Of a stretch of 64,000 nt of DNA, positions 17,810-45,800 are shown in pieces. Location of the stretch: assembly GCA_012845835.1 (NCBI GenBank), contig JABAKD010000027.1:15224073-15288072 (forward strand), in the 5' to 3' direction. Made by a program: the position numbers and the translations under genes. The notes under the pieces are model-generated. The model saw nothing but the letters and a program-made list of their open reading frames with translations. It did not search any database and had not been told where the DNA came from. Source of the stretch: Undaria pinnatifida (taxonomy: Eukaryota; Sar; Phaeophyceae; Laminariales; Alariaceae). The first letter of the stretch is position 1. Every line of letters starts with the position of its first letter.

Positions 17810-18004
17810 ATGATGCTCCGCGCCAGGAAACCGCTCGTCGTGGGCGCGTCGCACGGATACAACATGATGAAAGGACTGGCATTTGCATCGTCTTCTCGCT
17901 GCGCCGCCGCCAGTAACAGCGCTAGTATCAATGAGCTTGAGCTTGAGAATGTTCTCGTGGAACAGAGGGAGAGAGTCGGCATCATCACCTTCAACCGTCC
18001 CAAG
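17810..18004 (+). CDS. ECHS1: ECHS1 exon 1
   Basis: 65 codons: presequence, then the first beta strand of the crotonase fold ending [10 protein letters not shown]. Donor CCCAAG|GTGGGC, phase 0. A second ATG follows immediately at 17813. Confidence 0.9.
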
Positions 18005-21000
18005 GTGGGCGCTGAGCGATGCTATCAATATAGAACTACTTGTGTGTGTCTTTTTCCCGAAGGGGTCCGGTTGGTACATTCCTGGACTCTCGAGACCTCC
18101 CACTTGGACACCGCCTCCTTCCATTACTTGCGGAACGGTCCAACTTCTTTGATTTCTTCCTTCACCTTTTTTTCGTTGTTGCGCGAAGTATCATCAAGCC
18201 ATAAGGTCCCAGCTGAACTCAGCTTGGCTCATCAGCCCAGCTCAGCTCAGCAGCGCACCGCAGCGCTAGATCAGCAGCGCAGCGCCGTGCGGTGCCGTGA
18301 GTAGCCGTGCCCTGCTGTGCACTGCGGTGCGGTGCGGTGCGGTACTGTGCGGTGCTGTGTCGTGTTTTGCCGTGCTGCGTGCTTTGCTGTACTTGTTATT
18401 TCGTGCATACCAGATGTCATTCGAAGTATCATACCACTACCGGTACTACCACACCCGGTTTGTACGTACTACATTGATGGCTGAATCGTTAAAAATGCAC
18501 TCCCAGCTCAGCTCAGCTCAGCCCACCTATAGCTCAGCGGCACAGCGCAGCGTCCGTGCGGTGCCGTGCGGTTCCGTTCCTTGCCCTACGGTGCGGTGCT
18601 GGGCCATGCTGCGCTGTGCTTTCTTTCGAACATACCGCAGTACCAGGTATCTTGCGAAGCAGTAACAAGTACCGTTGTACGTGTGTACTCGTCTTTTTGC
18701 TTTCTTCGTTTGATTGTCCTCTCTCGGCCCTCTTGTGTTTTTTTCTTCGCATATTAGACCCCCTACTGCCGATCAGAACGTGACATATCCAGCATGCACA
18801 CAGCAAAGCACGGGACAATCAGCTCTTCACAAGCAGCTCTTGGCATTATCAAATCGCTAGTTGCACTAAATAATGGGCCTCTTCTTTCTGCCCCCTTTAC
18901 AGTTTTTTGTGGCATTCTTCCTTGCGCGAGCGTAGCAGAGCCCTCGTAGAGGCATTTTTTTCGTGTTTTTTTCCGAGAGGGCTCGTTTGGTACATCCCTG
19001 GCCTCTCAAGACCTCCCACTTGGACACTGCCTCCTTCCATTGCTTGCGGAACGGTCCAGCTTTTCTTTGGTTTCTTCGTTCACCTGTTTATTTTGTAGTT
19101 GCACGAACTATCATCATACAAGGTCTCAACTAAGCTCCGCTTGGCTCATCAGCTCAGCTCAGCTCAGAAGCGCACGGCAGCTCTACCTCAGCAGCGCAGC
19201 GCCGTGCCTTGCCGTGCCCTGCCGTGCTGTGTTCTTCCCCATTCGCATTCAGTTGTATCTTCCTTGCGCGAGCGTAGCTGGCGGCGGACGCCGCCCGCGG
19301 AACCGAGCCCTGATATATATATATATATGGTGTATGAGTTTTTAGGTCTTCATGGAGATCTACAACCAGCAGCCAGCACGAGCGCGAAAAAACTACCATG
19401 ATTACTGATCATATACGCCTCCTGTACCACAAGAAGCCGCAAACTCGAAGAAAGTGTCCCTGGGCTCCGCGTGCAGAACACCCACTCTGAACGCAATGGT
19501 ATGTACGTGTTGCTTTGATTGCGTCCCCCTTCCCTTAGATTCAGGTATTAAAAAGATATATTCGTCCACTACGCTTTCATTCGCGTGTATATATCGGTAT
19601 TTGCCCCTCTACATACAGAACACAGGCTTGACTCCTTTAGAAGTGCGCCCAATCTTTTCGGGATAAGCTTTGTGTGGGATGTTTTTGCAGTGGTACCGGG
19701 TACCTGGTATGCGTTAAGGTTGTTTCGAAAAAAATAAATCTGGTAGTAATGATTAATAGGACCAAATGTGCTTAGTGAAAACAGGGTAATACTATAGGGA
19801 AGTGTCACTACTACCGTGTATGACAGTGTGAGTGTTAGTGTTAGTGTTAGTGTTAGTGTATAACACCCCCCCTGGGATGAAATGCTGAGCCGGTTTCCTC
19901 CAAAACCAGCGCGGCACGACTAACGACGGTGGCGGCTTTGGGGGGATGTCGTCCAGATCTTTCCATAGGCGTGTCGCTCGGCGTTTAGAATCTACCGGTC
20001 GTCGAGAAATCGGCATACGAAACTCGTCCGAGGGGGTGTGCTATACACCGTCGTTATACGGTGTGGTCCTCCGTAATATTACGGAGGAGAGTTGTTATCT
20101 CGACGAAATGCGCATAACATTTTTATTTCATTTAAAAAAAAAATGACGTCCTGTTTTTTTTTAGCCTCGCCATTAGAGGTGTTTTATCACAGGCTTCCAA
20201 CAACCTGTACGTGTCAACACTGATCTGATCATGACGGTAAATACCTTGTCTGACAAGACTGCAGCTTTGATGTGGTGATAGTTTCATGCTCAAGTACAAA
20301 GTCCAGCGTACAGGAGGGCGAGATCAAAATGGCTCAAAGTTGTCGTTGAAATTGATTTGCCGATTCCTAGTGCCAGTAATTCGCAAAGAAGCGCGGCAAA
20401 CCTAGTATTTACAAAAAGCTTGGGATGTCGTGGTCCTGGCCATCGTAACAGTTTTAACTTTTTGAGTTTCCAGCCAGGTTTTACGGCGTATTTGAGCGAA
20501 ATTTAATTTCGCTGTACGCTAGGCTTTGTGATTGGGTACGAACTAACACCATATGAACGCTAAACACCTCTTAAATCAGTCAGGGCCTTTAGAGTCATGA
20601 GGTTATTAGGATGTGCGCCTGTGCGTTGTTGCAACTAAGGACACACTGTTGTTGTTCTCATATTAACTCGCATAATCAAGTCCATGGACAGGCTCCAGTC
20701 ACTCTGGAGCTGAGGAATACCCCAGGGAAAAACACAAACAAACCAAAGGTGGTCCACGCATATATCACAGCTGACGCAATTCATGCCACCACCAGAAACA
20801 TATAAAAAGTGAAACCGGGAGTCAGCCTACTATGTGCCAGGTCCATACTGGTGCATACGTCTCACTACTCTCGCCTGGAAAACCGACTTTACCGCTTGCT
20901 ACCCAGGAAAGCCTGCCACGTATATATTACACGTAGTACCTATCACTACGCATACGCACGTCAGACGCACTATTACCAGGTGCGCTAGAACGAAGGAAAA

Positions 21001-24000
21001 ACCGGTGAAGCAAAATGAACGTTCGATTTCAGTCGTGATAACAACCTTCCTCCGTAACGCGTAATAGTATTGCCTGAACGTTTCGGCCTTTCTGCGACCC
21101 TAGTCTGCTTGCTCCCAGAATTGCCCCCCTTAGTAGTGCACCCACGTTTTTTTCATGCAGACTATTTGGATTTTGTGTGGGATACGTTTTCCGGTAGTGG
21201 GAGTTATTGTTGTCGCTTTGACGTTTTTGGCCCCGCTACCGCTCGCTGTCTGCTGCTCGATGCTGTGTGATGTCTTGCTTTAGTATTTTCCTCGCGGGAT
21301 GTCTTTTGAAAGAGGGGGCGAGTAAATCCTCAACGAGGCAGGCGACAACGCCTGCCAGGTATGACGGAGGGACACTTGTTGTGAATCATGTCGCCGCCAC
21401 AGGGAGAGGGGACATCGTGCGATGAAGGGACACCTAATTTATTCCGCCGCAAGGGGGAGAGAGGATACGATAGCATCGATATTTGCTGCTCGCTCTCTGC
21501 TCCTCGCTTTCTACGACTCTTGTCTTGTTTGTTTTGTCACGCCTCACAAGAAAATTCGTGTCGACTTTTTGGCACTTTTCAGTGAAAGCCGTTTTTGACA
21601 TGTTGGCCCTTGCTGCGCGCTCGCCCTCTGCTGCTCCCTGTCTCTGCTGCTGCTGCTCCCGCTCTGCGGCTGCTGATCGCTCCCTGCCGCTCGCTCTGTG
21701 CCGCTGGCATCTGCGCCTGGTTTCTCTACTGCTCGCGCTCTGCTGCTCTCTCGCGTAACCCCGTCAGAGCTGCGCCCACGTTTTTTATACAAACTACTGG
21801 ATTTGTGCGGGATATTGGTGGCGGTGGTATGCCAGGAAAGTTTAACATCTAACATGAATTTTCACGTTTTTGTCGTCGCTGATGCGTGCTCTCTGCGACT
21901 CCCGTCTGTCTCTTGCTCGCTCTCTGCTCCTCGATATCTGCTGCTCGCTCTCTGCGGCTTCCGCCTGCTGCTTTCTCTCTGTGACCCGCGTCTGATGCTC
22001 GCTCTGTGCTGCTCGCTTTTTTGTGACCTCGCGTCTGTCTGCTTCGGACGTCTGTCTGCGACCGGCTCGCGTTTTTTTTCTTTTTCGGCGGGTGTTCCCC
22101 CAGGCTTTGAACGCGTTAAACAGCGGTCTGATCTTGGACATTTGCACGGCTGCGGAGGCGTTCGAAGCGGACCCGTCGGTGGCGGCTTTAGTCCTGACCG
22201 GCAACGAGAAAGCGTTTGCTGGTGAGCGGTGGACCCGTGCCACGCTAGGGGATAGCAACTTCGGGCAAAAATCTGACACGTCCTATGATAGATGTGCACC
22301 ATTTTTTTTATAGATTTCTTCTGGTACCCCTCACTTGGGCAGCTACCTGTATGGACACTGTCCACAGTAGAGGGAGCCCACTGTTTTTCTTGGGGCTCTT
22401 AACCTGTTAAGGAGTTTTTTTTTGTTTTTTTTTGCCATCTGAGGCAAAAACTGAGTTTGATCACGACCATAACGACCACAGTGCAACCCGACGAGCAATA
22501 TCATGTGGCCTATGTATAAAAAATATTAATATTGCGAAACAGTAATGTCAGATTCCGTCGATTTTTGGGTTAATGTTGGTGGTTAAGGAGTCCCGCCACC
22601 CAGAAAAAAAAGGACGAAAAAGTGCTACCTGCTATCGTAGCAAGCGTCCTATGTCTCACCCCAAAGAGTTGAGTTATTGTGAGTATGGAGTAAACTGAAA
22701 GTTCCACCTGATGAACGAACGCGTGGCCGAGATGTACAAGAAACAGTCATATGCCACAACAAGAATAACAGCAGCAGTATTCCGACGATGTGTGGTTAAG
22801 AGGGGTTAAGGGCCCCCCTCCCCCGTCATTCAGCAAAATAATATGTGTAAAAAAAAGGCTACTTCTATCGTATCACGCGTCATGTGTCCGGACTGAAAGG
22901 ACTCCTCCACTGGAGCAGTGGGCAATATCGTTGGAATGCTGCTGTTTGGTGTGTTTTTTCGACGCACATCTAGTGCCGTGAGATACAGTAGTTCGTCGGA
23001 TGGAGGTTTCGTTGCTGCTCTCAACGCTGTGTTTTGAGTGAGATATAGGGCTTACGTGAGGATAGAATGCCTCGGAGAGATTTGGTTCATCGCCACCCAT
23101 AGCGTGCATGCCTTGAATGTCGCGGGAGAGTGCTCCAAAACGTACCGGTACTATGATGCGTACGCGTTGCCTTCTTCGACAGCGGGCGCGGATATCAAGC
23201 AGTTGGCGAAATTAACCTACGCCGAGGCCTACGGACAAGACGTGTTCAAGGAATGGACCAGGCTCACTAACATCAGAAAACCGGTGAGGTATTGAGACAT
23301 CATAACCCTTTTACTGCATTGCCCATATTTTAGTTTTTAACGCCTTTTATGCTAATGGAAACGGTATCTTTACCTTCAAAAATCTCTTTTTGTACGCCGC
23401 TTCAGCGGCTGTATCTCGAGGGGAACTTGAAACAATCTTGTTTTTGGGTAACTAAAAACTGCAAATACAGTACCGCTGTGAGATCGAGGATTTCGCCGAA
23501 AGTCATCTTTGCAAGCTGTGTGCGATACTCCGATCGCGCGTGTCACGGTGTGTGTGTGTGTGTCCTTTTTTTTGCCAGGCGTAATCCATCCTTGTTGCGA
23601 GAGCTTTTTATTGTGCTCGGCAGTTCACACAGGGCTGGGTTCGAAGTTTTTTCGTTACAAGGGTGCAATATTTTGGCAGGGATCCAAATAGATATGTTTG
23701 CCGAAAATCGGCTTGCTAAAACGGGGACACTACGTGCTTTGACTCAGGGACTGCGTGCTTTGGAGTAGGGACTGCGTTATGTGGCGTATAAACGACGTGC
23801 TTTGAAACATGGACTGCGTGCTTTGACATAAGGATTACGTTCTTTGAAGTCTGGGCAAACATGTTTACGACACGCCCGGGAAGCTACGAATGAACCAAAG
23901 CACTTTCAGGGTAGCCAAACCTAACGCTTGTTGCCGTTCTTTTTTTGTCTTTCGTGTCCTCTCTCAAATAACCGCTTGTTGCCATTCTTTCGCCTGTGTT

Positions 24001-24828
24001 TGTTTTCGCGTCCCCGATGAAAGTTTGCTGCCCCTCTTTTCTTTGCGCTTTGTTTTTCGTCTCAAATAAAAATGTTGGTTGCGGATGTTTGCTATATTTT
24101 TGTTTCTCGTCTCAGATAATCGCTGCTGTCAATGGATACGCCTTGGGTGGGGGCTGCGAGTTGGCGATGATGTGTGACATAATCTTGGCCGGAGAGAAGG
24201 CGGTCTTTGGCCAGCCCGAGATAAGCCTTGGCCTGATACCTGGTGAGGAGGATGTCCCAACACAGCGGTACAGCAGGAAATAGGAAATGGCAATGCAACT
24301 TTTCCACGGCAATAGTAGTTCAGGAGAATTCCTAATGAAAAAAAAAATGAATGTCACGAACACTGATAAATAAAAACGTGGCATGTTTGCGAATCGTAGT
24401 ATTCTGTCACGAATGGTGACATTCAAAAAAATGCTATAAAACATTAGACTATAGATTTGTTATATTTATGTTGACAAAAGACATGATCTTGTTTAGAGAA
24501 CATGACGTAACGCCATTTAAAAAAATGTCGCGGATCGTAACTGTTTGCGTTCGTTGGTCATAATGATCCTTGTACGTGATAACGTTTTATTGGCTAAGTC
24601 CACTGCTGCATCTGTTTCGACTCTGTCACTCGCTGTACGAGTCGTTGCCGATCTCATATCAGTTGATTGCCCTGATCTAGTCTGTTGCCACGGAAAGGCA
24701 CAAGTCTACAGGTAGGTAGGAAAACCTAACCAAACAAAAAAGTATCTCCACGTCTTCGATGCCGCGGCTGTCGATTACAAGGCAAAGTATCGCTGCTCCT
24801 GAGGAAAACGTGCTGCTGCTGCTGCTGC

Positions 24829-24877
<49 letters not shown>

Positions 24878-24942
24878 CTTGTTCTTGTTCTTGTTCTTGT
24901 TGTTGTTGTTGTTGTTGTTGCTGTTGCTGTTGTTGTTGTTGC

Positions 24943-24986
<44 letters not shown>

Positions 24987-27900
24987 TTGTTGTTGTTATT
25001 GTTATTGTTGTTGTTGTTGTTCTTGTTGATATCACACTAGGCGATTGCCCTAATCCAACCTGTAGTCACGAAAAGGCGCAAGAAGTCTACTACAAGTAGG
25101 TAGGAGAACAAAACCAACCCTAGTACTAGCACTCAAGGGAATCACTGGCCGATATCCTTTCTGAGGACATACACACCCCGTTAACACGCGCGATCGAACT
25201 TTCACACACAGCGCAAAGATGAGTTATATCGACGAAATCCTCGCTCTCACAGCTGGAGTGTATCAATATCAAGTATCAGCTATTTTTAGTTTTTATAAAC
25301 AATGAGTCGAGCTACCAGGACGATAGCCAGCTCCGCGATCTATGGTACAGACACCTAATTAGAGATACTGAACCAATACGTTGGCTACTCATGTTTATCT
25401 CCTGCCGCGTCTGGTGTTGGCTTGCATCTGATGTTGGCTACCATATATGACAGAGTATACCACACCTCGCCTTGTATACGGCACCCCAACAGTATACCCA
25501 CCCGGGTGGTAATTATTAAGAAATCTTACACGACCACCCGATTTATCACCCGAGGTAAATTCTTTACCGCGTCCTATCCTCGATATAATGCCTCATAAAT
25601 CTGTATCACACCCCGGACTGCCTGTAATGTATCGGCAAGAGTCCTTTGTAACCACTGCTATCACCCCCCCTGTTATAATACTCGTACAGTAAACACCCGC
25701 GTGGCTCATATTCTAGAATCCCAAACGACCATCCGCTTTATCACCCGGGGTACGTTGTGCATCACCCCCCCCCCAGCATACCACCCCGGGTGATAAAAAT
25801 CGATAACCGAAATTATGATCATTGTTATACTCCTGTCATATACCGTAAACTTCTGCCGCATCTGCTGTAGGGTACTCTCCTGCTGCGTCTGATATTGGTT
25901 ATTTGTCTGGTGCTGTATCTGATGTTGGCTTGGGCAGGGTGGGGGGGCACGCAGCGGCTGGTTCGAGCGGTCGGGAAATCCAAGGCGATGCAAATGGTCC
26001 TAACCGGAAGCCGACTCGACGCAAAACAAGCAGAGAGAGATGGTAAGTCGACTCGGCTAATACATGGCAAACCGATCAGAGAGATGGTACGTCGATTCCT
26101 CTATTATACACAGCAAACCGAAACCGAGAGAGGGTAAGTCGATTCCGCGATTACATAACTAGGGCTATTTTACGACTTGGTCCAGCTTAGTTAAAATGGT
26201 TGTGTATATATATGTACCTGATTTTATATGTGCCTGATTTTACCCCTTGTGCCCGCTGCGAAAACAACTCCCTCATTATTTTCAAGTAGTTTTTCCGGAA
26301 AACGTGGATGCAAGTGGTCCTGACCAGAAGCCGAATGGACGCAAACTAAACAGAGAGAGGCGGTAGTCCTGGTGGTGACTACGTATTCCGTAAAACATAT
26401 TCTAAAAGCGTCAGCTGTGAGTTCGATAAATTTTTAGAATCGATTCTCGTCTTTCCAAGCTGCATAATACACCGGTCACCGGTTTTTAGAAAATGAATTC
26501 ATGAGTCAAAGCCTGTCCTGTAATGAACCCTGATGGAGACATCAACGTGTGAGGTGACATGGACATTAATGTTTATGTATTACGTCGAAGATATAATAAA
26601 GCGTCCTTTGTTATTATCACAATTAATCTGTATGTTACGATCGTGAGGTATGTACACCATTTAACAAGTGTAACGATACTGCCTTTTTCACATACCAGGT
26701 ATTATACTTTTTTTTTACCCTACTTAGTCACGTGACACAACAGTTTCATCTTTTGTTCCTCTCCATACGGGTTATATGGTATCAGCGCACAGAATTATTA
26801 GATTATAGACCGAAATCGCACTTGATGAAAACGTCCTCTGTGGACCCTGGCAGCATCAGGGGACTCACGTATGTTCAAAGAGGACTACATCTGTAAAAAC
26901 GCGCGACCGGCGTATCACGCAGCTTGAAACGAGGAGCGTCGACCCGTACATTGATCGAACTCGCAGCTGACCTACTAGAAACCATTTTATAAAACAGGCC
27001 AGTGGGGGTAGTGCTATTAAGAGCTACCGGTAGCTAACAAAGTAGACTCCGTAGCGAGGGCTGTTCCCGACTTAGTACAGCTAAAATAAGGTGGTTGAAA
27101 CCCCACGGAAAAGAGAGACGTTACGTCGACTCTGCTAGCGAGCGCTGTATATGACTTAGCTCAGCTTTCGGTAAAGTGTTGACGGTAGGTATACCTCATT
27201 TTAACCCTTCTGCCGCTGCAAAAAAAAAGGTGACCATTTTCAAGTAGGTTGTACCTGAAAGCGTGGACGTAAATGGTCCTCACCGGATTTCGACTGGGCA
27301 CAAACCAAGCAGAGAGAGACGGTAGGTCGACTCAGCTACTCGTGGTATGCCTTCGAGGCTTCATATTACTTAATCCAGCTTCGACGAAATTGTTGAGATG
27401 TGCTTGGTATTGGATAGGAAATTTCTTGGAATGAAGATGTAATGAGAGGCGGTAAGCTGGTCCGGCCACCTACGGGCTCGGCTAGGAACAGTCGTCAGTC
27501 CGCCTGTTTAATAAGGCATTGATATATTGCAAAACATACGACGGGTACCTGATCCCCCACTCTGTGAAGAGTATCATCCAAAAAGTCTTTCCATGGACAA
27601 TGTTCCGGCTGTCCCCCCATGTCTATACTCTGTAAGCACTGGTATTGTGTCACACCTAAAGCTCTTCCACGGAGAAAGTTCCTGCTGCCTATGGTCAAAG
27701 GCGTAGATGCCCACTCAGCTCCAGGCCAGAATCGCTGTAGTACCCGGGGTAGATGATCACGAAGAGGTCATTCAGGAAATATTGCGAATTGGTGACAGAA
27801 AAGAGCATATCAACTGGAAAGAGAGAACGACCACCGTCACACGTGTGGTGTTGTACAGCAGGGCCAACATCCGTTGTACCCGCCACAAGATTCGCGTACG

Positions 27901-29885
27901 TATCCGTCCATCTACGAAACCGGAAGATTAACCAAGATGTCCCCTGTCGACTGTATTTCCTGTCAATGTCACTGTTCTCTTGAAGCATTTGTCCAGTATC
28001 AAATCGGTCCCGCCGATCGTTCTCGTGCAACGATTATCGTTGCCGTGGACAGTATTCCCGCTGTTCCTTCCCGTGTAAATTTTCTCCTGGCCATGGACAG
28101 TATTCCTTCTTTTCCACCCTTTGTTTCATTCTTCTCGTTGTCGTGTGCTTCTTCTCGTGGAGGAATCGTATCACATCATAGAAAATGCTAATGTTCCTAC
28201 CAGTGTAGTTGTTATCCTTCCCGTGGACAATAGTGTTCCTGTTTTCCCTCCTCATGCTGCTCTTGTCCTTCTCGTGTGATTCTTCTCCTTCTCATGCTGT
28301 TCTTTTCCTTCTCGTGTGATTCGTCTCCTTCTCGTGTGATTCTTCTTCTTCTTCTGGTGTGATTCTTCTCCTTCTCGTTGATTCTTCTCTCCAAGGGACC
28401 GTATCACGTCGCTGGTCTTTCCATGAACAATGTCGACGTTCCTTCCGATGTAATTCTTCTCCTTCTATTGTACAGTTTTGTTCCTGTTTTTCCTTCCCAT
28501 GCCATTCTTCTCCTTATCATCATGTGATTATTTTATTAAAGAACCCGTATCACATGAAAGAGTATTTTCATGGACAATGCTCCTGCCTTTCTGTGTTCCC
28601 GTTTGACTATTCTCCTTCCCATGGACTATGATCGTGCGTTTCCTTTCCGTGTCTGACAATGCTAATTTTCTTTATGCTCCTTCCCATACGATTGTTCTCC
28701 TTTGTAGTCACTCTTCTCTCGAAGGACAGGTATAGCTGACACCTGGTACATCACGCCGAAAGAGTGTTTGCACGGACTGCTGTGTTCATGTTCCTGTTGT
28801 GCATGTTCCTGTTGTTGTGCCTTATGATGTGATTCTTCTCCTTCCCAGATGAACCTCCTCTGGAATAACTGGTATCCGCAATCTACCCGACCGCAAATCT
28901 GGCCGAAGAAGCGGTCAAAAGTGATATCTAACAATCACGCCAGGAGTGTTACCATGGACCGCTAACGCCCTTGATGCTCCTTCCCATGCGATCCTTCGCC
29001 TTCCTATGCACAATACTCCTGCTTGCCCTTCCCATGTCAGACAATGTCAAATCCCCTGCATTTTTTTTCCCATGTGACTGTGCTGTTGAAGGACTGGTAT
29101 CCGCAGTGTAACCGATCGGATATCTGGTTGAAGAGGCCGCAAAACATGATGTCCACAATCATGTCAGGCGTATGTCCATGGACAATGTTAATGTCAATTA
29201 TTGTTCCTGATGTTATTTCCCATGTCAGAGAATCTTGGTGTTCTTGCTGTTGCTTCCCTTGTCGCTCTTCTCTTGTAGGATTGGTATCCGCAGTCTACCC
29301 GGTCGAAGATCTGGTCGAAGAAGCGGTGAAAGTGGCGGCGAAGATCGGATCCATGTCAATGCCGATCGCCCTAATGGCGAAGGAGGCGGTCAACGCAGCG
29401 TTCGAGGGAAACCTAACAGAAGGCGTTCGCTTGGAGCGTAGGATCTTCCATGCTACGTTTGCGTTGGTGAGCGTCTTATGTTTGCCGGATGTGTTTATGT
29501 GCAGTTATTGTTTTTGTTCTTGTTCTTGTTTTTGTTTTTGTTCTTGTTCTTGCTCTCACGTTCATTCGTAGCCAAAATCTAGTCCGGAAATATATTCCAT
29601 GCTACTCTTTCCTTGGTGAGCATGCCCGCATCCTATTCGTAAGGTTTTGACCAGCCTGCGAGTTGATTTTGTTTGTCATGTTTCGTGACAGCTTGTCACG
29701 AATGACGATTTTTTATGTTGGCGTGAAATGACCTTTCGTGGTTCACGGTGCATCTGACCAGCCTGAATGACCCGCGTTTTTGCGCTTGCTCTATGATGTG
29801 ACGACACTGTCATTTGCAGGACGACCAGAAGGAAGGCACGTCAGCCTTCGCCGAGAAGCGCACGCCGAACTGGACCCACAAGTAA
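17810..29885 (+). CDS. ECHS1: Short-chain enoyl-CoA hydratase, mitochondrial type (7 exons)
   Basis: Crotonase-fold enzyme that hydrates trans-2-enoyl-CoA to 3-hydroxyacyl-CoA in fatty-acid and branched-chain amino-acid breakdown. Exons 17810-18004, 22104-22221, 23183-23283, 24116-24242, 25938-26042, 29279-29466 and 29820-29885 sum to 900 nt and join in frame to 299 aa. Human ECHS1 is 290 aa. Residues 1-35 are rich in Arg, Lys, Ser and Ala with no acid, which fits a mitochondrial presequence. Oxyanion-hole segment AGADIK is at 105-110 and [13 protein letters not shown] at 144-156. The two catalytic glutamates of the family correspond to E153 and E173 ([12 protein letters not shown]). All introns are GT-AG. 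The start is the first of two adjacent ATGs. Introns are large and repeat-filled and contain decayed copies of exons 4-6. Assignment to the ECHS1 group rather than another crotonase rests on the whole-length pattern, including [15 protein letters not shown] and the C-terminal SAFAEKR. Confidence 0.95.
18047..19230 (+). repeat. Two ~260 bp direct repeats in ECHS1 intron 1, offset ~910 bp
   Basis: 18047-18300 and about 18966-19220 share GGTACATTCCTGG/GGTACATCCCTGG, GACCTCCCACTTGGACAC, GCCTCCTTCCATT, TTGCGGAACGGTCCA, then a TCAGCTCAGCTCAG tract and GCAGCGCAGCGCCGTGC. A partial third copy of the last part lies at 18497-18600. The ends grade into GTGCGGTGCC minisatellite. These repeats make spurious open frames inside the intron. 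Confidence 0.75.
18835..18955 (+). repeat. Hairpin repeat family H, copy 3 (hairpin deleted)
   Basis: CTCTTGGCATTATCAAATCG opening and CTTGCGCGAGCGTAGC then AGAGCCCTCG. The GC hairpin between these blocks is missing, as if the stem had been excised or slipped during replication. Confidence 0.55.
19250..19320 (+). repeat. Hairpin repeat family H, copy 4 (3' half)
   Basis: CTTGCGCGAGCGTAGC, stem GGCGGCG/CGCCGCC, then GAACCGAGCCCTGATATATA. It directly abuts the second of the intron 1 direct repeats. Confidence 0.6.
19827..19860 (+). repeat. Hexanucleotide repeat (TTAGTG)n
   Basis: About five units of GTGTTA/TTAGTG, within ECHS1 intron 1. It resembles a telomere-type hexamer by composition only. 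Confidence 0.6.
20647..20975 (-). mobile_element. LINE 3' end, family with (AAC)n tail, copy 1
   Basis: Reading on the - strand it ends TTGATTATGCGAGTTAATATGAGAAC followed by AAC repeats (here split over 20647-20670). The upstream part matches the 3' UTR of the copy at 43139 over about 300 bp (blocks CATACGTCTCACTA, CAGGTCCATACTGGTGCA, CACGTAGTACCTATCACTACGC in + orientation). It is 5'-truncated with no coding part and lies in ECHS1 intron 1, antisense to the gene. Confidence 0.65.
21470..22060 (+). repeat. CT-rich degenerate minisatellite in ECHS1 intron 1
   Basis: Many variants of GCTGCTCGCTCTCTGC and CGTCTGATGCTCGCTCTGTGCTG. The array reaches to within 45 bp of the exon 2 acceptor and supplies pyrimidine-rich sequence upstream of it. 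It contains a duplicated CCCACGTTTTTT..AAACTA..TGGATTT block also seen at 21147. Confidence 0.6.
22104..22221 (+). CDS. ECHS1: ECHS1 exon 2
   Basis: Acceptor TGTTCCCCCAG, donor GCTG|GTGAGC, ending in phase 1. Encodes [13 protein letters not shown] through [10 protein letters not shown], the strand leading to the oxyanion-hole loop. Confidence 0.93.
22395..22960 (+). repeat. Diverged duplication in ECHS1 intron 2
   Basis: Two units (about 22565-22690 and 22795-22920) share a GGTTAAG opening, an A-rich run, GGCTACTTCTATCGTA-like/GTGCTACCTGCTATCGTA blocks, then GCGTC.TATGTC. They are about 230 bp apart and fill most of intron 2. Confidence 0.45.
23183..23283 (+). CDS. ECHS1: ECHS1 exon 3
   Basis: Acceptor CTTCTTCGACAG completes the split Ala codon and gives GADIKQL. 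Donor AAACCG|GTGAGG, phase 0. Encodes the helix after the oxyanion-hole loop. Confidence 0.93.
23728..23852 (+). repeat. Minisatellite, ~23 bp period, ECHS1 intron 3
   Basis: About five diverged units of GGACTGCGTGCTTTGA(A/C)(A/T), spacing 20-25 bp apart from one longer spacer. Confidence 0.7.
23925..24100 (+). pseudogene. Decayed copies of the exon 4 acceptor boundary
   Basis: The true boundary reads TTTCTCGTCTCAG|ATAATCGCTGCTGTC. Upstream in the same intron are CCTCTCTCAAATAACCGCTTGTTGCC (from about 23960) and TTTTCGTCTCAAATAAAAATGTTGG (from about 24054), where the splice AG has become AA. They read as two earlier tandem copies of the end of intron 3 plus the start of exon 4, now unable to splice at that site. 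Confidence 0.5.
24116..24242 (+). CDS. ECHS1: ECHS1 exon 4 (catalytic core)
   Basis: Encodes [17 protein letters not shown] and [12 protein letters not shown], thus both catalytic glutamates (E153, E173) and the oxyanion-hole glycine (G150). Donor CCTG|GTGAGG, phase 1. Confidence 0.96.
24815..25027 (+). repeat. (TTG)n microsatellite, about 210 bp
   Basis: Near-pure TTG with short GCTG, TTCTTG and TTATTG interruptions, in ECHS1 intron 4. It produces a poly-Leu frame on + and a poly-Thr frame on -, both artefacts. A (TTG)n tract on + is what an antisense (AAC)n LINE tail would seed, but no LINE body adjoins it. Confidence 0.9.
25395..25805 (+). repeat. Direct duplication in ECHS1 intron 4
   Basis: The blocks CGACCACCCGATTTATCACCCG(A)GGTA (about 25530) and CGACCATCCGCTTTATCACCCGGGGTA (about 25728) recur ~200 bp apart. 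The acceptor-proximal phrase CTGATGTTGGCTT before exon 5 also recurs at 25429 (CTGATGTTGGCTA). Confidence 0.5.
25938..26042 (+). CDS. ECHS1: ECHS1 exon 5
   Basis: Acceptor GGCTTGGGCAG, donor GATG|GTAAGT, phases 1 and 1. Encodes [20 protein letters not shown], the GGTQRL signature after the second catalytic glutamate. A tryptophan occupies a position often held by a small residue, which is tolerated in some crotonases. Confidence 0.94.
26297..26372 (+). pseudogene. Decayed copy of ECHS1 exon 5 (first)
   Basis: ATGCAAGTGGTCCTGACCAG, AAGCCGA.TGGACGCAAA and CAGAGAGAG match exon 5 (ATGCAAATGGTCCTAACCGG, AAGCCGACTCGACGCAAA, GCAGAGAGAG) in order. The end has GGCGGTAGTC where the true exon has GATGGTAAGT. 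The copy has no acceptor at the matching place and a damaged donor. Confidence 0.75.
27255..27335 (+). pseudogene. Decayed copy of ECHS1 exon 5 (second)
   Basis: GTAAATGGTCCTCACCGG, CGACTGGGCACAAACCAAGC and AGAGAGAGACGGTAGGTCGA parallel exon 5 and its donor, including the intronic GTCGACTC(A/G)GCTA that follows. Small shifts break the frame. Upstream text (CTGCCGCTGCAAA..TTTTCAAGTAG) is shared with the first copy (26255-26290), so the duplicated unit was larger than the exon. Confidence 0.75.
28200..28420 (+). repeat. CT-rich minisatellite, ~25 bp period, ECHS1 intron 5
   Basis: Repeats of TTCTCCTTCTCGTGTGATTC. Related phrases (CTTCCCATG, CATGGACAATGTT) recur from 27580 to 29240, so most of the 3' half of intron 5 is degenerate tandem sequence in which the exon 6 copies are embedded. 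Confidence 0.65.
28866..28927 (+). pseudogene. Decayed copy of ECHS1 exon 6 (first)
   Basis: CTGGTATCCGCAATCTACCC then CTGGCCGAAGAAGCGGTCAAA parallels exon 6. It is still open for about 20 codons ([17 protein letters not shown]) before a TAA, but no acceptor AG precedes it in frame. Confidence 0.8.
29090..29152 (+). pseudogene. Decayed copy of ECHS1 exon 6 (second)
   Basis: GGACTGGTATCCGCAGTGTAACCG..ATCTGGTTGAAGAGG matches the first ~50 bp of exon 6, with a stop (TAA) at the sixth codon. Confidence 0.8.
29279..29466 (+). CDS. ECHS1: ECHS1 exon 6
   Basis: Acceptor CTTCTCTTGTAG, donor GCGTTG|GTGAGC, phase 0. Encodes [20 protein letters not shown] through [16 protein letters not shown], the C-terminal helical part used in oligomer contacts in the family. 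Confidence 0.95.
29588..29621 (+). pseudogene. Decayed copy of the end of ECHS1 exon 6 with donor
   Basis: ATTCCATGCTAC.CTTT.CCTTGGTGAGCATG parallels the true ATCTTCCATGCTACGTTTGCGTTGGTGAGCG boundary 150 bp upstream. The GTGAG donor itself is preserved. Confidence 0.7.
29820..29885 (+). CDS. ECHS1: ECHS1 exon 7 (terminal)
   Basis: Acceptor CATTTGCAG. Encodes [18 protein letters not shown] and a TAA. The KEG-SAFAEKR ending is typical of the family C terminus. Confidence 0.95.
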   Translation, partial: DDQKEGTSAFAEKRTPNWTHK

Positions 29886-30262: not shown

Positions 30263-33200
30263 GCTGCTGCCTAACGCCTTTAGCACCGCACCCACAATTT
30301 GGGGACAAAGTACTTGGAGTTTATGTGGGATCAGTTTGCAATGGTACAAAGGTTAAGGCAAGGGGATGTTTCCGTGAAGCCACGGTATCATCGTCCTAGG
30401 CTCGTGGGGTCTGGTGCTGTACGTGCTGCGTGTGTACGTTTGTTTTGCCGAACCTTGGTTGTGTTGAGTGATGTCAGTAGTAGAAGAAGTGTTGTTGGGC
30501 GTCGTTCGATGATCGGCTGGTTTGATCGGCTGTTTTGTTGTTGTTCTGCTGTCGTTGCCGCGGCAACATACCGTCCAATCCTTGCCACGGCTTATGTATG
30601 GGTTTGTTCCGCATGCATTCAAAATGAGCGTCCGCGTGGTTGGTGTGTCGGTATTTGGTGAGATGGTGTGTGTTGTATAAAATTTGGTAAGACCTCTCAG
30701 CCGTAAGATCGAGAATTCCTTCGAAAGTTAACTTTGTAAGCTGCGTGTGATGCTTCGATCGCGCGTGCTACGGAGCTTACTTCGAAGCATGACCTCGTGA
30801 TGAATATAAAGGGTAGGCGAGTCCCCCGGGTGTTATTTTAGAAAAGTGAAAAATAATTCGGCCGTGATGATCGAAATTGTTTTAATCAAAACTCGTTGTT
30901 GCAAGCTGCATGTGATACTTCGATCGCGCGTGTACGAGGTGTTTATACCCTGATGAAGGATGATAGGTCGGTTACTCCCCTGCTGATACCAGAGTCAACA
31001 GGACTAAGACGTTTATTATGGGACCAAGTGTGTGTTTCAGGGGGGCCGACTAACCAATACAGCTGTGCTGTAGCATGGTAGGTACCATGGTGCAGCTGTT
31101 GTGGAGTATATGCGATGCAATCGACAGGTTCTTCGAACTCGCACGGTGGAGAAGGACGAGCTCGTCTCTCTATGAAGCATCAGCACGGATGCTGGTTCTG
31201 CTGGATGTAGATAAAGTGGAGAGATCTCTTTCATGCGTCGGGTCCGGTTTCGCAAGAGCAGGCCCTCCTCCTCCCCTCGTGCTGCGGTGCGTGCCCTTAC
31301 ATGAAAAGAAGACGGAAGAATGCCAAAACTAAACATGCTTTTGAGGAGATTGAGTCGCTACTCATATAGGGAAAGCGCGACATCTACCCTCGTATCGTAA
31401 GGTATCAGGTTTCACTATTACGGCTACTACTGCTGCTGCTGCTACTACTACGACTACTGCCACTACTAACTACTACTATCTGAAGCATGTTATGGAGTGG
31501 TCACATAGCCCACATCCCCACATAATCCTACTCAATTATTTCTTCCTCTCGCGCTGTGTCTTAACCCCTTTAGAGCCCCCGAACCCCTCCCTATACTAAA
31601 TCCAAGTAATTTTGTCCCCAAAAACGGGTTTCCAGTTGTAAAGGGGTTAAGAGCGTCCCTGGAGTCAATCTACGAAAAAAACTTTGAAAGAAGACCGTGC
31701 CGTTTGCAAGCATTGACACCCATCCCTGTGCCCCTCATCTCTAGCTCCTTCGTAGCGTACTGCTGCTGAATCAACTCAGCCCACCCGATGGACCGGGAAT
31801 TTTCTTCTACTGTGTCACCATATTTTTGTGTGTTTACCTCCCCTCCGACTCCGGCGGGCTCGCTTGTAATATATGTAGATATCTTGAATTACATTTTTTG
31901 TTACTCTTGTCTTCTCCCCCCCCCCCGCCCCCCCCCCCAACTCCTATCTCTCCCTCACCCCTCCCCATACCCCCTCCCTGCTAGAAAATGGCATGTTGCG
32001 TATGTTATGGTATAAACTATATATAATATGTAGGGAACATCCGCCACAGAAGACGCCTCACTATGTCGGCAGCGCTCGTCGAGCAAGGCACCGCTGTACC
32101 GTCATCTCGTCTCAACCGCACGGCGCACCTGCTCCTAACTACTCAGGTTGGTTGCAAGCGCTGTATGGTCAACGGTACACCGTTTTATGGCGTACAGGAC
32201 ACCGGCGGATACGCCCCTCAGACCTCAGCAATGTCAACCCCGTCAGTTTTGGAATTAAACAAGGCAAATAACAGCGCACGAGTCACGTCTCACGGAGCAA
32301 CAGCATACAACCAACAGAGCACTGTCGGAGGAACCAAAAGAGCACTCTGCTATTATGCTGCTACACATGCGAGGTCAGAACATGCGCTATTAATAGCTGT
32401 GGATGGGTCCTCTGGGGCATGCAGTATGTCAACATGTCGGGGCGCTTTGGATCTGGGTCATGTATGCCGACATGTCGGAGCCCTTCGGTTGCTTTGGCTC
32501 ACCGTACTCGACCCTGCCCGCAACTACTACGCTGTATGTACGTCCACTAACGAACCGAGCGCATAGGGCGATAGCGAAAAATTGGTATACATATGCCCTT
32601 TGATACATGAGAATTTCGGGATAGGTTATTATGCTGTGATATAGATTTGGTGCGGGCATGACCAAAATGTTTCAAGGCTCCTCCATTTTTAGTTTTTTAT
32701 TTTTGTTTGCTCATTCCTTCTATTATTACCTGTGCGTTGCACTTTTTTTTTTTCTCCTTTTCCCTCCCTGGGTATAACTCAGATCCGGGGTCACCAAGCA
32801 TGCTCTTCATCCCCCCTCCCCACTACGGTAGGCGCGTTCATTTTTATCACGAAAAGACGCCAAGCCACAGCCCTTTCTTCCCTCCTCGTCGACTCGCATC
32901 GAATCGGGGGAGCTCTTTATACCTCAATTTTCGATATCTGACGTGTCATTTTGATCGTGTTTGTCAAATACTACGTACCTCTTACGCGACAGCTGAGTTT
33001 CAGAAAAAAAACGAGAAACCGCAACCGAATAAATATAATCCCCATGAACCTACTGCACACAACGCATCCTATCCATGATATCTAGAACAAAGAAGCGGAC
33101 TCCAATTCCAACGATACTGCGTGCGTTGATTGGGCAGTTGAGGAGCTCCGCCTTTTCAGAAACGTTTTGGCCAAAAAAGCGCTGTACGTACACACAACAG

Positions 33201-34461: not shown

Positions 34462-36690
34462 CAACGAGTATAGGTCACTAGCGCGAGAGTCGTTCTGTGT
34501 AATTCCTCAGTCCATGGCGGCGGCGGCGGTGGATACTGGGAAACCGAAAGGCACAACAACAAAAACTCAAGCATCGCCAAGCAATAGGTAGGGTAGCCAC
34601 GTCTAAGATCGCAATGCAACAATAGGTAACACAGTAGAGGTATTCCTAAGACTAAAAGAACGGCCCCCCTACCCCCTACCATACAGTACAGCCTCGGTCA
34701 GTGCTCTGTAGGTTGCTTTTGGTAGCAAGCCGCCTGTTGCTCTGTGGGACGTGTGCTGCTTTTGTCGACCTTGTCCCTTAATTAAAAAGTAGACATATAT
34801 TGGGTCGCCGTTGCCCGGGTCTGATGGGCGTATCCTCTGCTCTGTACACCTTAATACGGTGTGTACCGTACACCATCAAACAGTGAAAAACAACTTGAGC
34901 AGTTAGGAACCGGTAAACCATAAATAGGAGGTGCGGCCAGATCACGGCGGTACATTGGTGCCCTGGTCAATGAGCGTTGCGAAAATATGGTGATTTATGC
35001 GGCGGATTTTCCTTCTATACCGTAAAATGGCGCACGCACCTCAATTTTACCCCGTCTTCTGGTCAAATCCCTTATAACTCTACCGGCATTCGCGCACACC
35101 ACGAGATATATCCCATGTACGTGAGCTTTAAGAGGAAACATCGATTGATAGTGAAAAAAATGTTACGGTAGTCTGTGTGGCTCTACGAACACAGGTCAAC
35201 AAAACCAAAAAAAAAAAAACGAAAGCGAAGAAAACTAACACTATTTGGTAAATGTTTGATCAATCAAGTGCAAGTATGAGCGTATAATGAGGCTTGTACA
35301 TTCTCAACTAGCAACCGAGAATACTGCTTTACATCCCCCCCCCCCCTGAAACCTTACGAGCGGTTCTTCGAAGGATGCAGTCTACCCTTCATGCGACCCG
35401 CCAAACACCTCACGGCGCTTCGCGCTTGGTGCAAGCAACGTCTGCCTGGTTGGTGAAAGCCCGACGTGCTCCGTCCCGGCGTAGTATGGATGCGAGGGTC
35501 TATGGTCATGCGACTACGGCCATGCACAAACTGAGTGCACCCCTCCCCTTGGAACCCTTTCGAACCTAACCGGCGCCAGTTTGGACTCACGCCTGGCGTA
35601 CTCGATTTAATTTCCGATTACAACAATTGAATTACAAACTCACGGCAAGCAACAAGAAAAATGGCTTACAGCAAGCAAGCGGCCATAAAAACCAACATGA
35701 AAGTATTTTGTAGTTACCGACAATGGAAATTGACTGAAGAACATGCAGCAATAAGAAATTTGATTTAACAGCATGGATCAACACATAAATCGACCTCGAG
35801 CAAGCAGTTGAAAAAACCACAAGCAGAGAAAGCCAGGGCACGCGATGGTACCCCCTTCGCCAGGAAAACAGAGGTAATTAATCGACCTCGAGCAAGCAGT
35901 TAAAAAAAACACAAGCAGAGAAGGCCAGGGCACGCGATGGTACCCCCTTCGCCAGGGAAACAGAGGTAATAGTGATGGTGGCGGCGGTGCTCACGCCTGG
36001 CAATAGTGAATGCTTGTGGACGTCACCATGCCATCATCGCGAACACATAACATATGTCGTTCGCCATTTCCGCCCCCCCCCCTTCGGTATTAGTAAAATT
36101 AATAATATTTTTGATGGTCGAACTTGAGTGAAAAACATGGTCCTCTGACCAGCTTAAACTGCCAACGCGTTACTTTAACCATGCAGACAGCATAAAAAAC
36201 GAACACAACAAGGCCTACAGGTATCTATGATTGGAGCAGCCAAAGGGGGAAAGGTCAGAGCCTGCAGCTTTTCGATTGGTATGAATCTTTCAACGGGTAA
36301 TCTGATTGCTCGAAAAAGCTTTGGCTTCACCCGTAACGTAGTGGCTACTGCGTTTGTCTTTCAAAATCCAAGGAAAAATGATACGCTCCCCCACCTCGCT
36401 ATATTGTACATTACAATCACAAAAAAAATAAATAAAGCACTTTCTGTCAACTCTACGTCGTCACTACGCTTCAATGCATCTCGGTAAACAAAAACAAAAA
36501 GCAAAACACTGCTACGTAGTGACAAATCATTACTTCGTGCTTGGCTGTAAATCACCTAAAATAAAAATAGCTCACACAACGGCTACCACTAGTAATAGTA
36601 AAAAAAGGGGTACATCATACACATCCGGCAACGTTTTGTCACGACCCCCCTCGATAGACCGACTCATCATCACCCACCACCGTCGAACAC
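34462..36690. other. No gene seen; local ~100 bp duplication at 35785-35970
   Basis: The phrase ATCGACCTCGAGCAAGCAGTT..AAAA.CACAAGCAGAGAA(A/G)GCCAGGGCACGCGATGGTACC occurs at about 35786 and 35880, a clean tandem duplication broken only by a few substitutions. 35372-35490 is the inverted relative of 592-718. No exon is supported. Confidence 0.5.
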
Positions 36691-37414: not shown

Positions 37415-38175
37415 TCTTGCTACGCGCTCGCGCGTCGATTACATCTACACAGACGGCTCTTGCCATTACGAGAGAACGGTGCACACGAGAGAGACTCAAA
37501 GCGAGTCACAGTCGTTCGACACACCTACACAAAACAGCTCTTTGCCATGACGAGCTAAACCGAGAGCCTCAAAGCCAATCACAGCGAAACACCTACACAA
37601 GCGGCTCTGCCTGCCGATAAGAGCGAAGGGCGCACACGCGAGAGGCTCAAAACGAGTCACAGCAGTAGTGCGATACACCTAGACTCTCAGCGCGCAAAAC
37701 GAGTCACAGCAGTAGTGCGATACACCTAGACTCTCAGCGCGAAGTCACAAGAGCGTCGACTACACCTACACAGACGAGTCTTGCCGTGGCTAGGACAGGG
37801 TCTACACGGGAGAGCCTCAAACGCGAGCCACAGAGCCATACACCTACACAGGCGGCTCTGCCTGCCGCAATGAGCAAAGGTCCACGCCCCAAAGCATGTC
37901 ACTGAGTGACACACCTCCACAGGCGTCTCTGCCTGCCAGAAGGAGCCATTGGTCCGCACGGGAAATCTTCAAAGCGAGTCACACCTACACACCCGGCTCT
38001 TGCCACGACGAGCATAGGGTCTACACGGGAGACCTCAAAGCGTCAAAGAGAGACGTGTAACAAGCTGAAGGCCCTGTCACCCTTCGCGCGGACTCCACTG
38101 GAGAGACCCAAAAGCCGGTCGCAGAGCGGCACACCTCTTGCTTCAAAGCGTATAGCTTCAAAGCGAGTCACAGAG
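37415..38175 (+). repeat. Minisatellite, ~60-100 bp units, at the 3' end of the zinc-cluster gene
   Basis: Units combine CTCAAAGCGAGTCACAG, CACACCTACACA(G/A), GCGGCTCTGCCTGCC and GGTCTACACGGGAGA. Two adjacent 53 bp units at 37640-37745 are nearly identical (ACGAGTCACAGCAGTAGTGCG). The last unit contains TCAAAGCGAGTCACAGAGGG at 38158, whose complement supplies the final codons and stop of the minus-strand gene model. Confidence 0.8.
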
Positions 38176-42898: not shown

Positions 42899-45800
42899 AG
42901 ACTTGTGCTCAGTAGCATGATGACCGCCAAATATATCAATTTTCTAAATTGTTCACGTTCAATATTACCATTAATAATGACGAATCATGACAAATTACTA
43001 GCTAAAAATCACCAACTAAAAGAAGGCGGCCGGTGTAGAACGCAGCTTGCAAAGATGAGTATCGACCCTGAATTCGTCGAACTCGCAGATGACGTTGGAA
43101 AATATAAAATAGGCAATGCTTGTGTTGCGGAACGAGGGACCGTTGTTGTTGTCGTTGTTGTTGTTCTCACATTAACTCGCATAATCAAGTCTGTGGTCAC
43201 AGGACAGGCTCCAGTCACTCTGGAGCTGAGGAATACCCCAGGGAAAAACACAAACCAACCAAAAGGTGGTACACGCATTTATCACAGCTGATGCGATTCA
43301 TGCCTCCACCAGAAACATATAAAAGTGAAATCGGGAGTCAGCCTACAATGTGCCAGGTCCATACTGGTGCATACGTCTCACTTCCCGCGCCTGGAAGAAC
43401 CGACTATACCGCTTGCCACCCAAGAAAGACTAGTACGTATATATTGCACGTAGTACTTATCACTATGCATGCGCACGACAGACGCAAGTCAATTGGAAAA
43501 AAGAAACAAAGAAAAGAAAAGAAAATAAGATAAAGGAAACGAAAGAAAAGACAAGAAAGAGAAAACGAAGGAGAGAAAAGAACAGACAAGAAAAGAACAG
43601 ACAAGAAAAGCAAGACAAGACAAGACAAGAGGAAGCACGGAAAGGAACAGAGGAAAAAATGTCATACAAGTACTAGCAGACCCTAGGAACTGACTAAAGA
43701 CGACATTGGGCTCATAAGAGGGTATCAAGTGCATCATCAATGGCACTGGGGAGAGAACGCAGCATGGAGAAGAAGTCAGGGCGATCTTGCGCTATCTTGT
43801 GACGGCCATTGGAAGGCCCACAAATTTCAAGACGATGATGGCCAGACCCAGACTTCAGTCTCTTGGGCATGACGCCCCCCCTTCCCCCCCCCCTCTTCCT
43901 CCCTCTTCCCCCCTCCCCCTCCTCCCTCCACCCCCCCCCCCCCGCCCCCCCTCCCTCCGCCAGTCTCTTGGGCATGACGCCCCCCCTTCCCCCCTCGCCC
44001 CCTCCCTCCCCCCCCTCCCTCCCCCCCCCCCCCGGTCGCTTAGAGATGCCGGTGGCGCTGCCGCAGCCTTTGCGCGTCGCTCTGCAGCTTTGCGTCTCTC
44101 CGTTTCATGCCAATTCCGCATCAACAACTCTGCTCCCTCTTCTACTCGTCGAAACCATCTGCCGCCTTGTGAGCAGCCTTTCGCCACCCTTCGAATTCCA
44201 ATCCAAAGACCGACATATCCTCCTTCAGATGAGCCATCCAGTCCTTCTCTTGCCCCCCTGAGTAGCCCTTACCCCCAACAAGCTCCCCAAACATCACCCT
44301 CTGTGGCAGAAGCTCCTCCCCCATACGTGCAACGAATCCCGCAAACAATATCCTCCGTTTGCTTACTATCGACTCTATGCTCTCGGAAGCTGTCTTGGCA
44401 AGCGCGTCGGCGTACGACAGGGTGTGGTCGTCGCGCTTCCGTTTCCGCTATCCGAGGCATCGGAGGAGCATGGAATGGTGAACCCGTCGTAGCCTGTCAT
44501 AGTCAGGCTTGTTCGGGCTCCACGTCATGCAACCGTAAAGCAGTTATTACAACTACAAGAGATGAGGCGGAAAGTCCACAACGACATGAACTCACCGATT
44601 GCTTGTCTTCGGCCGTTGCTGCTGGGTAGAGGTTGGCAGTGGCCTGCGCGCAGCCGATGATGCCGTCGCCGCTTTTGCAGGTGCGGCAGTAGCAGCAGCA
44701 GACGCAGCTGCAGCGGCAGCAGCGGGAGCAGACGCAGGTCGTCCTGTGGCTGCCCTCGGCGTGGACGTCGACTGCTGCTTGGAAGTTCTCGATATTTTGA
44801 GGGCTCTCCTTTTGCAGTACTTGGTCCCCTGCAGACAGAGGGAAAGTTCAACGTGGAGGATGGAGAAGCTCGTCAGATTACTCTCCTCTTCCAAGTGCGC
44901 TATTGAGCGGGTGAGGTCAAGTAAGAAGTGTACTTCGGGTATAGCATTAAAAAATGCCAGGAATGCACTTGTATATTTTGGCATGCTGTTTTCTGGCGGT
45001 CGATATTTTTTTCTCGCGCTTTCGGCTGTGGGGCAAGCAAGGGGTCCGTCGGCACATTACAACGCATGTCTGGATCCTTTCCGTGACGCGTGCTCTGAGC
45101 ATTCACTGTCGCTGAGCTGGCTCTTTTGTGATGGGTTAAGTTCCGCCTCGCTGAGCCGAGCAGGTGCTTGGAAAACCTGACAATTTATTGGTATTTTCCT
45201 TCGATCTATTTTTTATCCGCTCCGCTCTCCCGCCCGCTATCCAAGTCAATCCTATCGTTTTACATTCACATCTGCTGTCGGCTATGTCGCTTTGACACAG
45301 CTATAATACGTATAGCCAGCAGCAACAGCGGCACCAGCACCGACAGCAGCAGTAGCACATCTCTCAAACATCATACGTACCTGCTGCATCTAACACTCTG
45401 CTGCTGTCCTACTCGTATTCTTTTGTATCACACGTGGCTCTCCATGCTCTGTTCTTACTCGTGAGTGTCACGGTACAGCAGCAGCATAACAGCAGCAGCG
45501 CTGTGAGCTCTCTCCTTTCTGACAGCCAAAGGCGCTTCTGCTTGTGCGCGCTTCTGTGTGTACCAGATATGTGTGAGCGAAGTGTGTGCTGTCACAAAAT
45601 CATTTACAGGAGCACACGAGCAGCTACATCGGCAGCCGTGTTTCAAGCTCTTGCCTTTGTGCCAGTGTTACCAGGGCTTTTCATGGATCAGGTCAACCGC
45701 GCGGGTCGGGTCGGGTCGGATCGGGTCAGGTGACCCAACCCGACCCGACCCGCCAGGCTCCGAATGACCAATGATAGAAGGTCATGTCGTAGGTCGGGTC

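What the first reader, a model, noticed from the sequence alone, without database searches (positions are those of the whole stretch)
23925..29621. Serial decayed copies of ECHS1 exons 4, 5 and 6 inside its own introns
Exon 5 has two damaged downstream copies (26297, 27255). Exon 6 has two damaged upstream copies (28866, 29090) and a copied 3' end with intact GTGAG (29588). The exon 4 acceptor has two upstream look-alikes with AG changed to AA (23960, 24054). The copies include intronic flanks, so the unit duplicated was larger than the exons. The gene seems to have lengthened its introns by repeated local tandem duplication, leaving one functional version of each exon. One exon 6 copy is still open for ~20 codons, so it may be young or recently spliced. 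Inclusion of a copy would normally break the protein.
Basis: seen in the sequence. Interest (0 to 1): 0.82.

Follow-up and report, generated by a model that had tools for sequence, protein, structure and literature searches.

The report
Decayed partial exon copies, kelp introns
Beside three exons of one kelp metabolic gene lie broken copies of the exon edges, left behind by short local DNA duplications of a kind that is common in this seaweed's genome, so the find is real but mostly ordinary.

Summary
The window is the kelp Undaria pinnatifida and the gene a seven-exon ECHS1 whose splice product equals the catalogued 299-aa protein. Exon 5 has two decayed copies of its 3' half plus donor downstream. 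Exon 6 has two clear copies, and a fainter third, of its acceptor plus first ~50 nt upstream, and one copy of its 3' end plus donor downstream. Exon 4's acceptor ends a faint array of ~48-nt units; of the two look-alikes listed, only 24049-24069 is significant alone.

The interpretation needs correcting. No copy is a whole exon. Each is a fragment straddling a splice junction. The copies look neutral: stops, no codon-position bias, the true exon least changed. ECHS1 is also not special. Local direct repeats cover 11.6% of the window, exons are not enriched for them, and 20 other 10-kb stretches of the genome give 11.8%, with 124 direct against 11 inverted pairs under 1 kb. Enoyl-CoA hydratase-family matches elsewhere show the same in 4 of 14. 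A dispersed inverted-repeat element separates the two exon 5 copies.

Best reading: widespread local tandem duplication. Where a unit spans a splice junction it leaves a spare junction inside the intron, which then decays.

The parts
17810..29885 (+). ECHS1 (enoyl-CoA hydratase, mitochondrial), 7 exons, 299 aa, Undaria pinnatifida
   Evidence: model, (mitochondrial enoyl-CoA hydratase in the PDB, E=5e-96; 100% identical to Undpi1 protein P0001)
24116..24242 (+). true exon 4
23924..24119 (+). faint array of four ~48-nt units (pyrimidine tract) ending in the true exon 4 acceptor; 24049-24069 is the clear copy, AG->AA
25938..26042 (+). true exon 5
26035..26156 (+). repeats of exon 5 donor plus ~25 nt of intron (26035 true, 26079, 26126); TRF 26034-26153, 2.6 x 47 nt
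26307..26365 (+). decayed copy of exon 5 3' half plus donor GT (49/59 identical), in-frame stop; likeness to the true flank ends 3 nt into the intron
26400..26980 (.). dispersed MITE-like element with ~89-nt terminal inverted repeats (26400-26488/26894-26980, 75%), lying between the two exon 5 copies
27040..27137 (+). further degraded copies of the exon 5 donor-side unit (27040-27095, 27112-27137)
27271..27338 (+). second decayed copy of exon 5 3' half plus donor and 17 nt of intron (57/68 identical)
28062..28561 (+). degraded overlapping direct repeats in the acceptor-side half of intron 5
28647..28733 (+). third, probably oldest copy of the exon 6 acceptor region/head
   Evidence: nhmmer E=1.6e-7
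28842..28959 (+). decayed copy of exon 6 acceptor region plus head (core 28870-28919, 43/50), acceptor AG lost (AT), 20 codons open
29029..29183 (+). decayed copy of exon 6 acceptor region plus head (core 29067-29137, 56/71), acceptor AG intact, stop after 5 complete codons
29279..29466 (+). true exon 6
29592..29621 (+). copy of exon 6 last 24 nt plus intact GTGAGC donor (25/30)

Best explanation
The copies are neutral fossils of short local tandem duplications (units of about 48 to 400 nt) that are common in the Undaria genome. When a unit spans a splice junction, it leaves a second junction, with its piece of exon, inside the intron. Only the junction contiguous with the rest of the exon can give a normal protein, so that one is kept and the intronic one decays by stops, substitutions and loss or weakening of its splice site. 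Repetition lengthened intron 5, and a MITE-like element now lies between the two exon 5 copies. Shown: homology, direct orientation, fragmentary units, stops, the same background elsewhere in the window and in 20 sampled stretches. Inferred: the molecular step (slippage, unequal crossing-over or microhomology repair), the order of events with the element, and silence in mRNA.
For: Direct copies: in the both-strand search the minus-strand hits were to the GTT-rich tract or marginal and far away (E=0.016 and 0.058). Two exon 5-derived stretches share intron as well as exon: 26233-26366 and 27194-27325 at 76%, E=6e-19, extending to 160 of 225 aligned positions over 26113-26366 / 27100-27325. Window-wide: 39 direct against 10 inverted repeat pairs under 2 kb (pairs within one array are not independent); exon bases under repeat arms 109 of 900 against 104 expected from circular shifts. 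Junctions with a local direct copy at E<=0.01: 3 of 12, random points 267 of 1500; at E<=1e-5: 2 of 12 and 206 of 1500. Twenty 10-kb stretches at round coordinates on 7 of the 68 contigs: 124 direct against 11 inverted under 1 kb, 25 against 7 at 1-3 kb, 11.8% coverage (range 1.6% to 31.9%), at least one local direct pair in each, none in locally shuffled sequence. Enoyl-CoA hydratase-family matches outside ECHS1: 4 of 14 with a direct copy overlapping the match, none inverted. Differences spread evenly over codon positions, 21/82, 18/82, 24/82, and in-frame stops in all four main copies, two of them at or just beyond the edge of the clear core. True exon changed least: 1 private change against 3 and 6 (exon 6), 3 against 6 and 5 (exon 5). 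The catalogued protein P0001 and the relative P0002 (298 aa, longest contig 1001 nt) contain no copy. The MITE-like element.
Against: No RNA data were available, so silence of the copies is not shown. The background was measured in one genome, in 264 kb of 511 Mb; whether it is unusual among eukaryotes is not known from these calls. In the point test inverted copies are also frequent (161 of 1500 at E<=0.01; 0 of 12 junctions), so not all local repeats there come from tandem duplication. Nine of 12 junctions have no copy at that threshold, so the clustering in introns 3, 5 and 6 could still have a local cause. The codon-position counts include stretches of exon 6 copies beyond the clearly aligned core. 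Just past the donor, the 26307 copy differs alone from the other two at 10 of 17 sites, so its downstream intron flank is not shown to be homologous.
Confidence: 0.87

Rival explanations
1. The copies are retained because they act as decoy or regulatory splice sites: use of a copy gives a premature stop and nonsense-mediated decay, tuning ECHS1 output.
For: Several copies keep a usable dinucleotide: donor GT in 5 of 6 donor copies examined, acceptor AG in the 29090 copy.
Against: Decay without visible constraint; acceptors of the 28866 copy and both exon 4 look-alikes are lost; the same density of such repeats outside the gene and elsewhere in the genome.
Confidence: 0.05
2. The copies are remnants of once complete, alternatively spliced (mutually exclusive) exons that died.
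For: Exon sequence with flanking splice-site remnants is present, one copy open for 20 codons.
Against: No copy shows both ends of an exon; likeness to exon 6 stops about 50 nt in, and the exon 5 copies begin mid-exon.
Confidence: 0.03
3. A transposable element carried exon pieces into the introns.
For: Intron 5 does contain a dispersed MITE-like element, 26400-26980, parts of which match 9 of 20 sampled 10-kb stretches.
Against: The exon copies lie outside the element; exon 6 matches one place only in the 511-Mb genome at E<=0.001 (which however did not report the weak local copies either); the copies lie within 1.3 kb of their source and in direct orientation.
Confidence: 0.03
4. Chance resemblance or assembly error.
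For: The 23960 exon 4 look-alike alone is at background level.
Against: E-values to 1e-15, p at the floor of 2000 shuffles in eight of nine tests, cores 79-90% identical, too far apart to be duplicated reads or haplotypes (inference).
Confidence: 0.02

Closest known systems
Internal gene duplication / intron change by tandem genomic duplication (Rogers 1989, Gao and Lynch 2009; as cited in PMC4974935, passages seen)
   Same: Short tandem duplication inside a gene, covering exon-intron structure and duplicating splice sites; PMC4974935 also mentions an 83-bp tandem duplication inside an intron that does not change the exon-intron structure.
   Different: Here no new intron is seen; existing introns grow and the spare junctions decay. 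Several rounds are visible in one gene.
Tandem exon duplication leading to mutually exclusive exons (PMC9013439, search listing and start of abstract only)
   Same: Local direct duplication of exon plus flanks.
   Different: Here the units are fragments of exons and none can serve as an alternative exon.
Intragenic LRR exon duplication in brown algal ROCO genes (PMC11378527, passages seen)
   Same: Brown algal genes with intragenic exon duplication.
   Different: There exons are kept and alternatively spliced; here the products look non-functional. The same mutational supply could serve both (inference).

Membership tests
Local tandem duplication fossils (close direct repeats) | direct orientation, short distance, excess over inverted repeats | tested here: met
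Local tandem duplication fossils (close direct repeats) | unit crosses functional boundaries without regard to them (no enrichment at junctions) | tested here: met
   (3 of 12 junctions vs 267 of 1500 points); only 12 junctions
Local tandem duplication fossils (close direct repeats) | neutral decay of the copy | tested here: met
   small numbers
Tandem/mutually exclusive exons | complete exon with acceptor, donor and open frame | tested here: not met
   the copies found are partial, the four main ones with stops
Tandem/mutually exclusive exons | inclusion in mRNA | not testable with these tools
   no RNA-seq reads; the catalogued protein lacks them
Intron gain by tandem duplication | new intron position absent in relatives | not tested
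   no relative's genomic DNA was obtained
MITE (26400-26980) | terminal inverted repeats, short, dispersed | tested here: met
MITE (26400-26980) | target-site duplication | not tested
   ends only roughly placed

The most novel reading that the evidence does not exclude
In this kelp, and perhaps in kelps in general, repeated small tandem duplication is a leading route of intron growth, and boundary-spanning units leave fossil half-exons with spare splice sites beside a sizeable fraction of all exons (4 of 14 matches in the one family sampled). This would be a steady supply of raw material for new splice forms and for the repeated exons of brown algal immune receptors.
Probability: 0.25. Interest if true: 0.55.

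Novelty: new member of a known kind. Interest (0 to 1): 0.33.

Why it matters
Because true exons stay conserved, their intronic fossils are a sensitive clock and detector of a duplication process that is otherwise hard to see in fast-decaying introns. If the rate seen here is general, kelp introns (average 1,057 bp in Saccharina japonica against 703 bp in Ectocarpus, PMC4421812, passage seen) could be dated and explained piece by piece, and gene predictors in kelps should expect false half-exons.

Tried and rejected
Pfam scan of two 15-kb stretches, one forward frame each, found only an ECHS1 exon, so other genes in the window were not modelled and the junction test rests on ECHS1's 12 junctions. 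One viral contigs pattern scan found nothing. Splice-site loss as a sign of selection against upstream acceptors was considered: acceptors are lost in the 28866 copy and both exon 4 look-alikes and kept in the 29090 copy, donor GT is kept in 5 of 6 copies. The numbers are too small and the idea came after looking, so it is not claimed. Tandem arrays with units of 30 nt or more number 68 in 264 kb, with a spread of identities (67 of the 68 fall between 50% and 100%; 2 at 95% or more); loose settings were used and no shuffled control was run for that count, so I use it only as a hint of a continuing process. In the enoyl-CoA hydratase survey 17 matches were examined; L006, L014 and L018 are ECHS1's own, leaving 14, of which L003, L005, L012 and L016 have a direct copy within 1.5 kb overlapping the Pfam match (gene models not checked). 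L003 is weak (E=0.001 and 0.005) and L012's match has stops, so it may be a pseudogene; at E<=1e-5 the count is 3 of 14 (L005, L012, L016). One search did not report the local copies of exon 6, so it would miss other copies as weak as these. P0010 was fetched but left out of the nine-protein alignment; by eye it too lacks the two Undaria-only residues. A wider survey with PF00225, PF00171 and PF00063 and a genome search for intron 5 did not complete. Nine literature searches listed no report of exon fossils in kelp introns; only named algae or kelp, and listings were capped, so this is a statement about those searches only.

Full report
What the window is. The gene at 17810-29885 is ECHS1: seven exons, GT-AG introns, 299 aa, closest in the PDB to mitochondrial enoyl-CoA hydratase. 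It is letter-for-letter the protein catalogued as jgi/Undpi1 HiC_scaffold_27.g12261, so the organism is the kelp Undaria pinnatifida. That Undpi1 means Undaria pinnatifida is my reading of the label; several of the nearest named relatives are brown algae, and the held genome has 511 Mb, as does the published assembly (511 Mb of contigs, PMC7058681, passages seen). Introns 1-6 are 4099, 961, 832, 1695, 3236 and 353 nt (from the coordinates).

The copies. Each exon +-100 nt was compared with the whole window on both strands. Exon 5 has copies at 27271-27338 (E=1e-15) and 26307-26365 (E=3e-12). Exon 6's head has copies at 29029-29137 (E=3e-12) and 28870-28919 (E=4e-11), and its tail has one at 29592-29621 (E=0.006). 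The other hits that are not simple sequence were intronic or marginal. Nine pairings were tested against 2000 shuffles each: eight reach the floor of the test (p=0.0005), and the 23962 exon 4 look-alike reaches only p=0.05. The stretch before exon 4 is periodic at about 49 nt (p=0.006), whereas the same test before exons 2, 3, 5, 6 and 7 gives p from 0.13 to 0.88. A profile of the exon 6 head finds a third copy at 28647-28733 (E=1.6e-7), and weak hits further up intron 5, E 0.05 to 0.4.

The unit. Copies straddle a junction: donor copies lie downstream of exons 5 and 6, acceptor copies upstream of exons 4 and 6. Two exon 5-derived units share intron as well as exon sequence: 26233-26366 with 27194-27325 by BLAST (76%, E=6e-19), and over 26113-26366 / 27100-27325 in a pairwise alignment of the two stretches (160 of 225 identical); a profile of them also finds 27315-27402, 27040-27095 and 26072-26108. 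So the duplicated unit was exon fragment plus intron, not a whole exon. Between the two exon 5 copies sits a dispersed element with 89-nt terminal inverted repeats (26400-26488 and 26894-26980), parts of which match 9 of 20 sampled 10-kb stretches. Within-gene direct repeats cover 1387 of the 3236 nt of intron 5.

Decay and age. The four main copies contain in-frame stops, two of them at or just beyond the edge of the clear core, and differences fall on codon positions 1, 2 and 3 in 21/82, 18/82 and 24/82 sites (the exon 6 comparison includes sequence beyond the clear core). In three-way comparisons of coding sites the true exon has the fewest private changes: 1 against 3 and 6 in exon 6, 3 against 6 and 5 in exon 5; in the 17 intron sites after the exon 5 donor the 26307 copy stands alone at 10, so its likeness ends there. 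Both exon 6 copies carry two residues seen only in Undaria among the nine proteins aligned: Ala where two others (P0002, P0006) have Lys and six have Arg, and Lys where the eight others have Ala. Both exon 5 copies carry an Arg (SR in the true exon) found in Undaria and P0002 but not in the other seven. Gene conversion could blur this dating, and it rests on very few sites.

Is ECHS1 special? It does not look so. After masking simple repeats, the window has 39 direct and 10 inverted repeat pairs less than 2 kb apart. The direct arms cover 11.6% of the window, 10.3% of the gene from intron 1 on and 11.9% outside it; 109 of 900 exon bases lie under an arm against 104 expected from circular shifts. 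Three of 12 junctions have a direct copy within 3.3 kb at E<=0.01, as do 267 of 1500 random non-exonic points; for inverted copies the numbers are 0 of 12 and 161 of 1500. In 20 other 10-kb stretches, taken at round coordinates on 7 of 68 contigs, the density is the same: 11.8% coverage (1.6% to 31.9% by stretch), 124 direct against 11 inverted pairs within 1 kb, 25 against 7 at 1-3 kb, 13 against 12 beyond, none in locally shuffled sequence. Tandem arrays of units of 30 nt or more show a wide spread of identities (no shuffled control), and the window holds one 47-nt duplication at 100%, which suggests a continuing process. Of 14 enoyl-CoA hydratase-family matches outside ECHS1, four have a direct copy within 1.5 kb overlapping the match (three at E<=1e-5), and none an inverted one.

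Mechanism. The simplest account is neutral: short tandem duplications arise widely, those inside exons are mostly removed by selection, and those crossing a junction survive because the splice site next to the intact exon still works. The spare junction then decays. This is inference from anatomy; RNA data were not available. A regulatory use of the spare sites is not excluded but has no support here.

Relation to what is known. Tandem duplication within genes, with duplicated splice sites, is well known (PMC4974935, passages seen, and the works it cites). Brown algal ROCO genes are reported to shuffle and duplicate LRR exons (PMC11378527, passages seen). Nine searches listed no description of half-exon fossils in kelp introns; four of them named algae or kelp. 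The single case is therefore a member of a known kind; its abundance in a kelp genome is the part worth following.

Noticed in passing
26400-26980: MITE-like element with ~89-nt terminal inverted repeats in intron 5; parts match 9 of 20 sampled 10-kb stretches of the genome and 43016-43094 of the window.
   Followed up: partly
24829-25028: 200-nt TTG-rich trinucleotide tract in intron 4, flanked by a direct repeat (24665-24733 and 25043-25117, 75% identical).
   Followed up: no
18046-18196 and 18963-19116: 155-nt direct repeat, 85% identical, inside ECHS1 intron 1, starting 42 nt after the end of exon 1.
   Followed up: no
23453-23548, 25182-25263, 30678-30773, 30889-30933: A dispersed motif (around GATCGCGCGTG) in both orientations in and after ECHS1, probably another repeat family or the end of an element.
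   Followed up: no
37648-37741 and 35788-35970: Young-looking tandem duplications (47 nt x 2, 100%; 92 nt x 2, 95%).
   Followed up: no
L016 1652-1727 / 1875-1950: An enoyl-CoA hydratase-family match elsewhere (C31) with an 88%-identical 76-nt direct copy beside it.
   Followed up: partly
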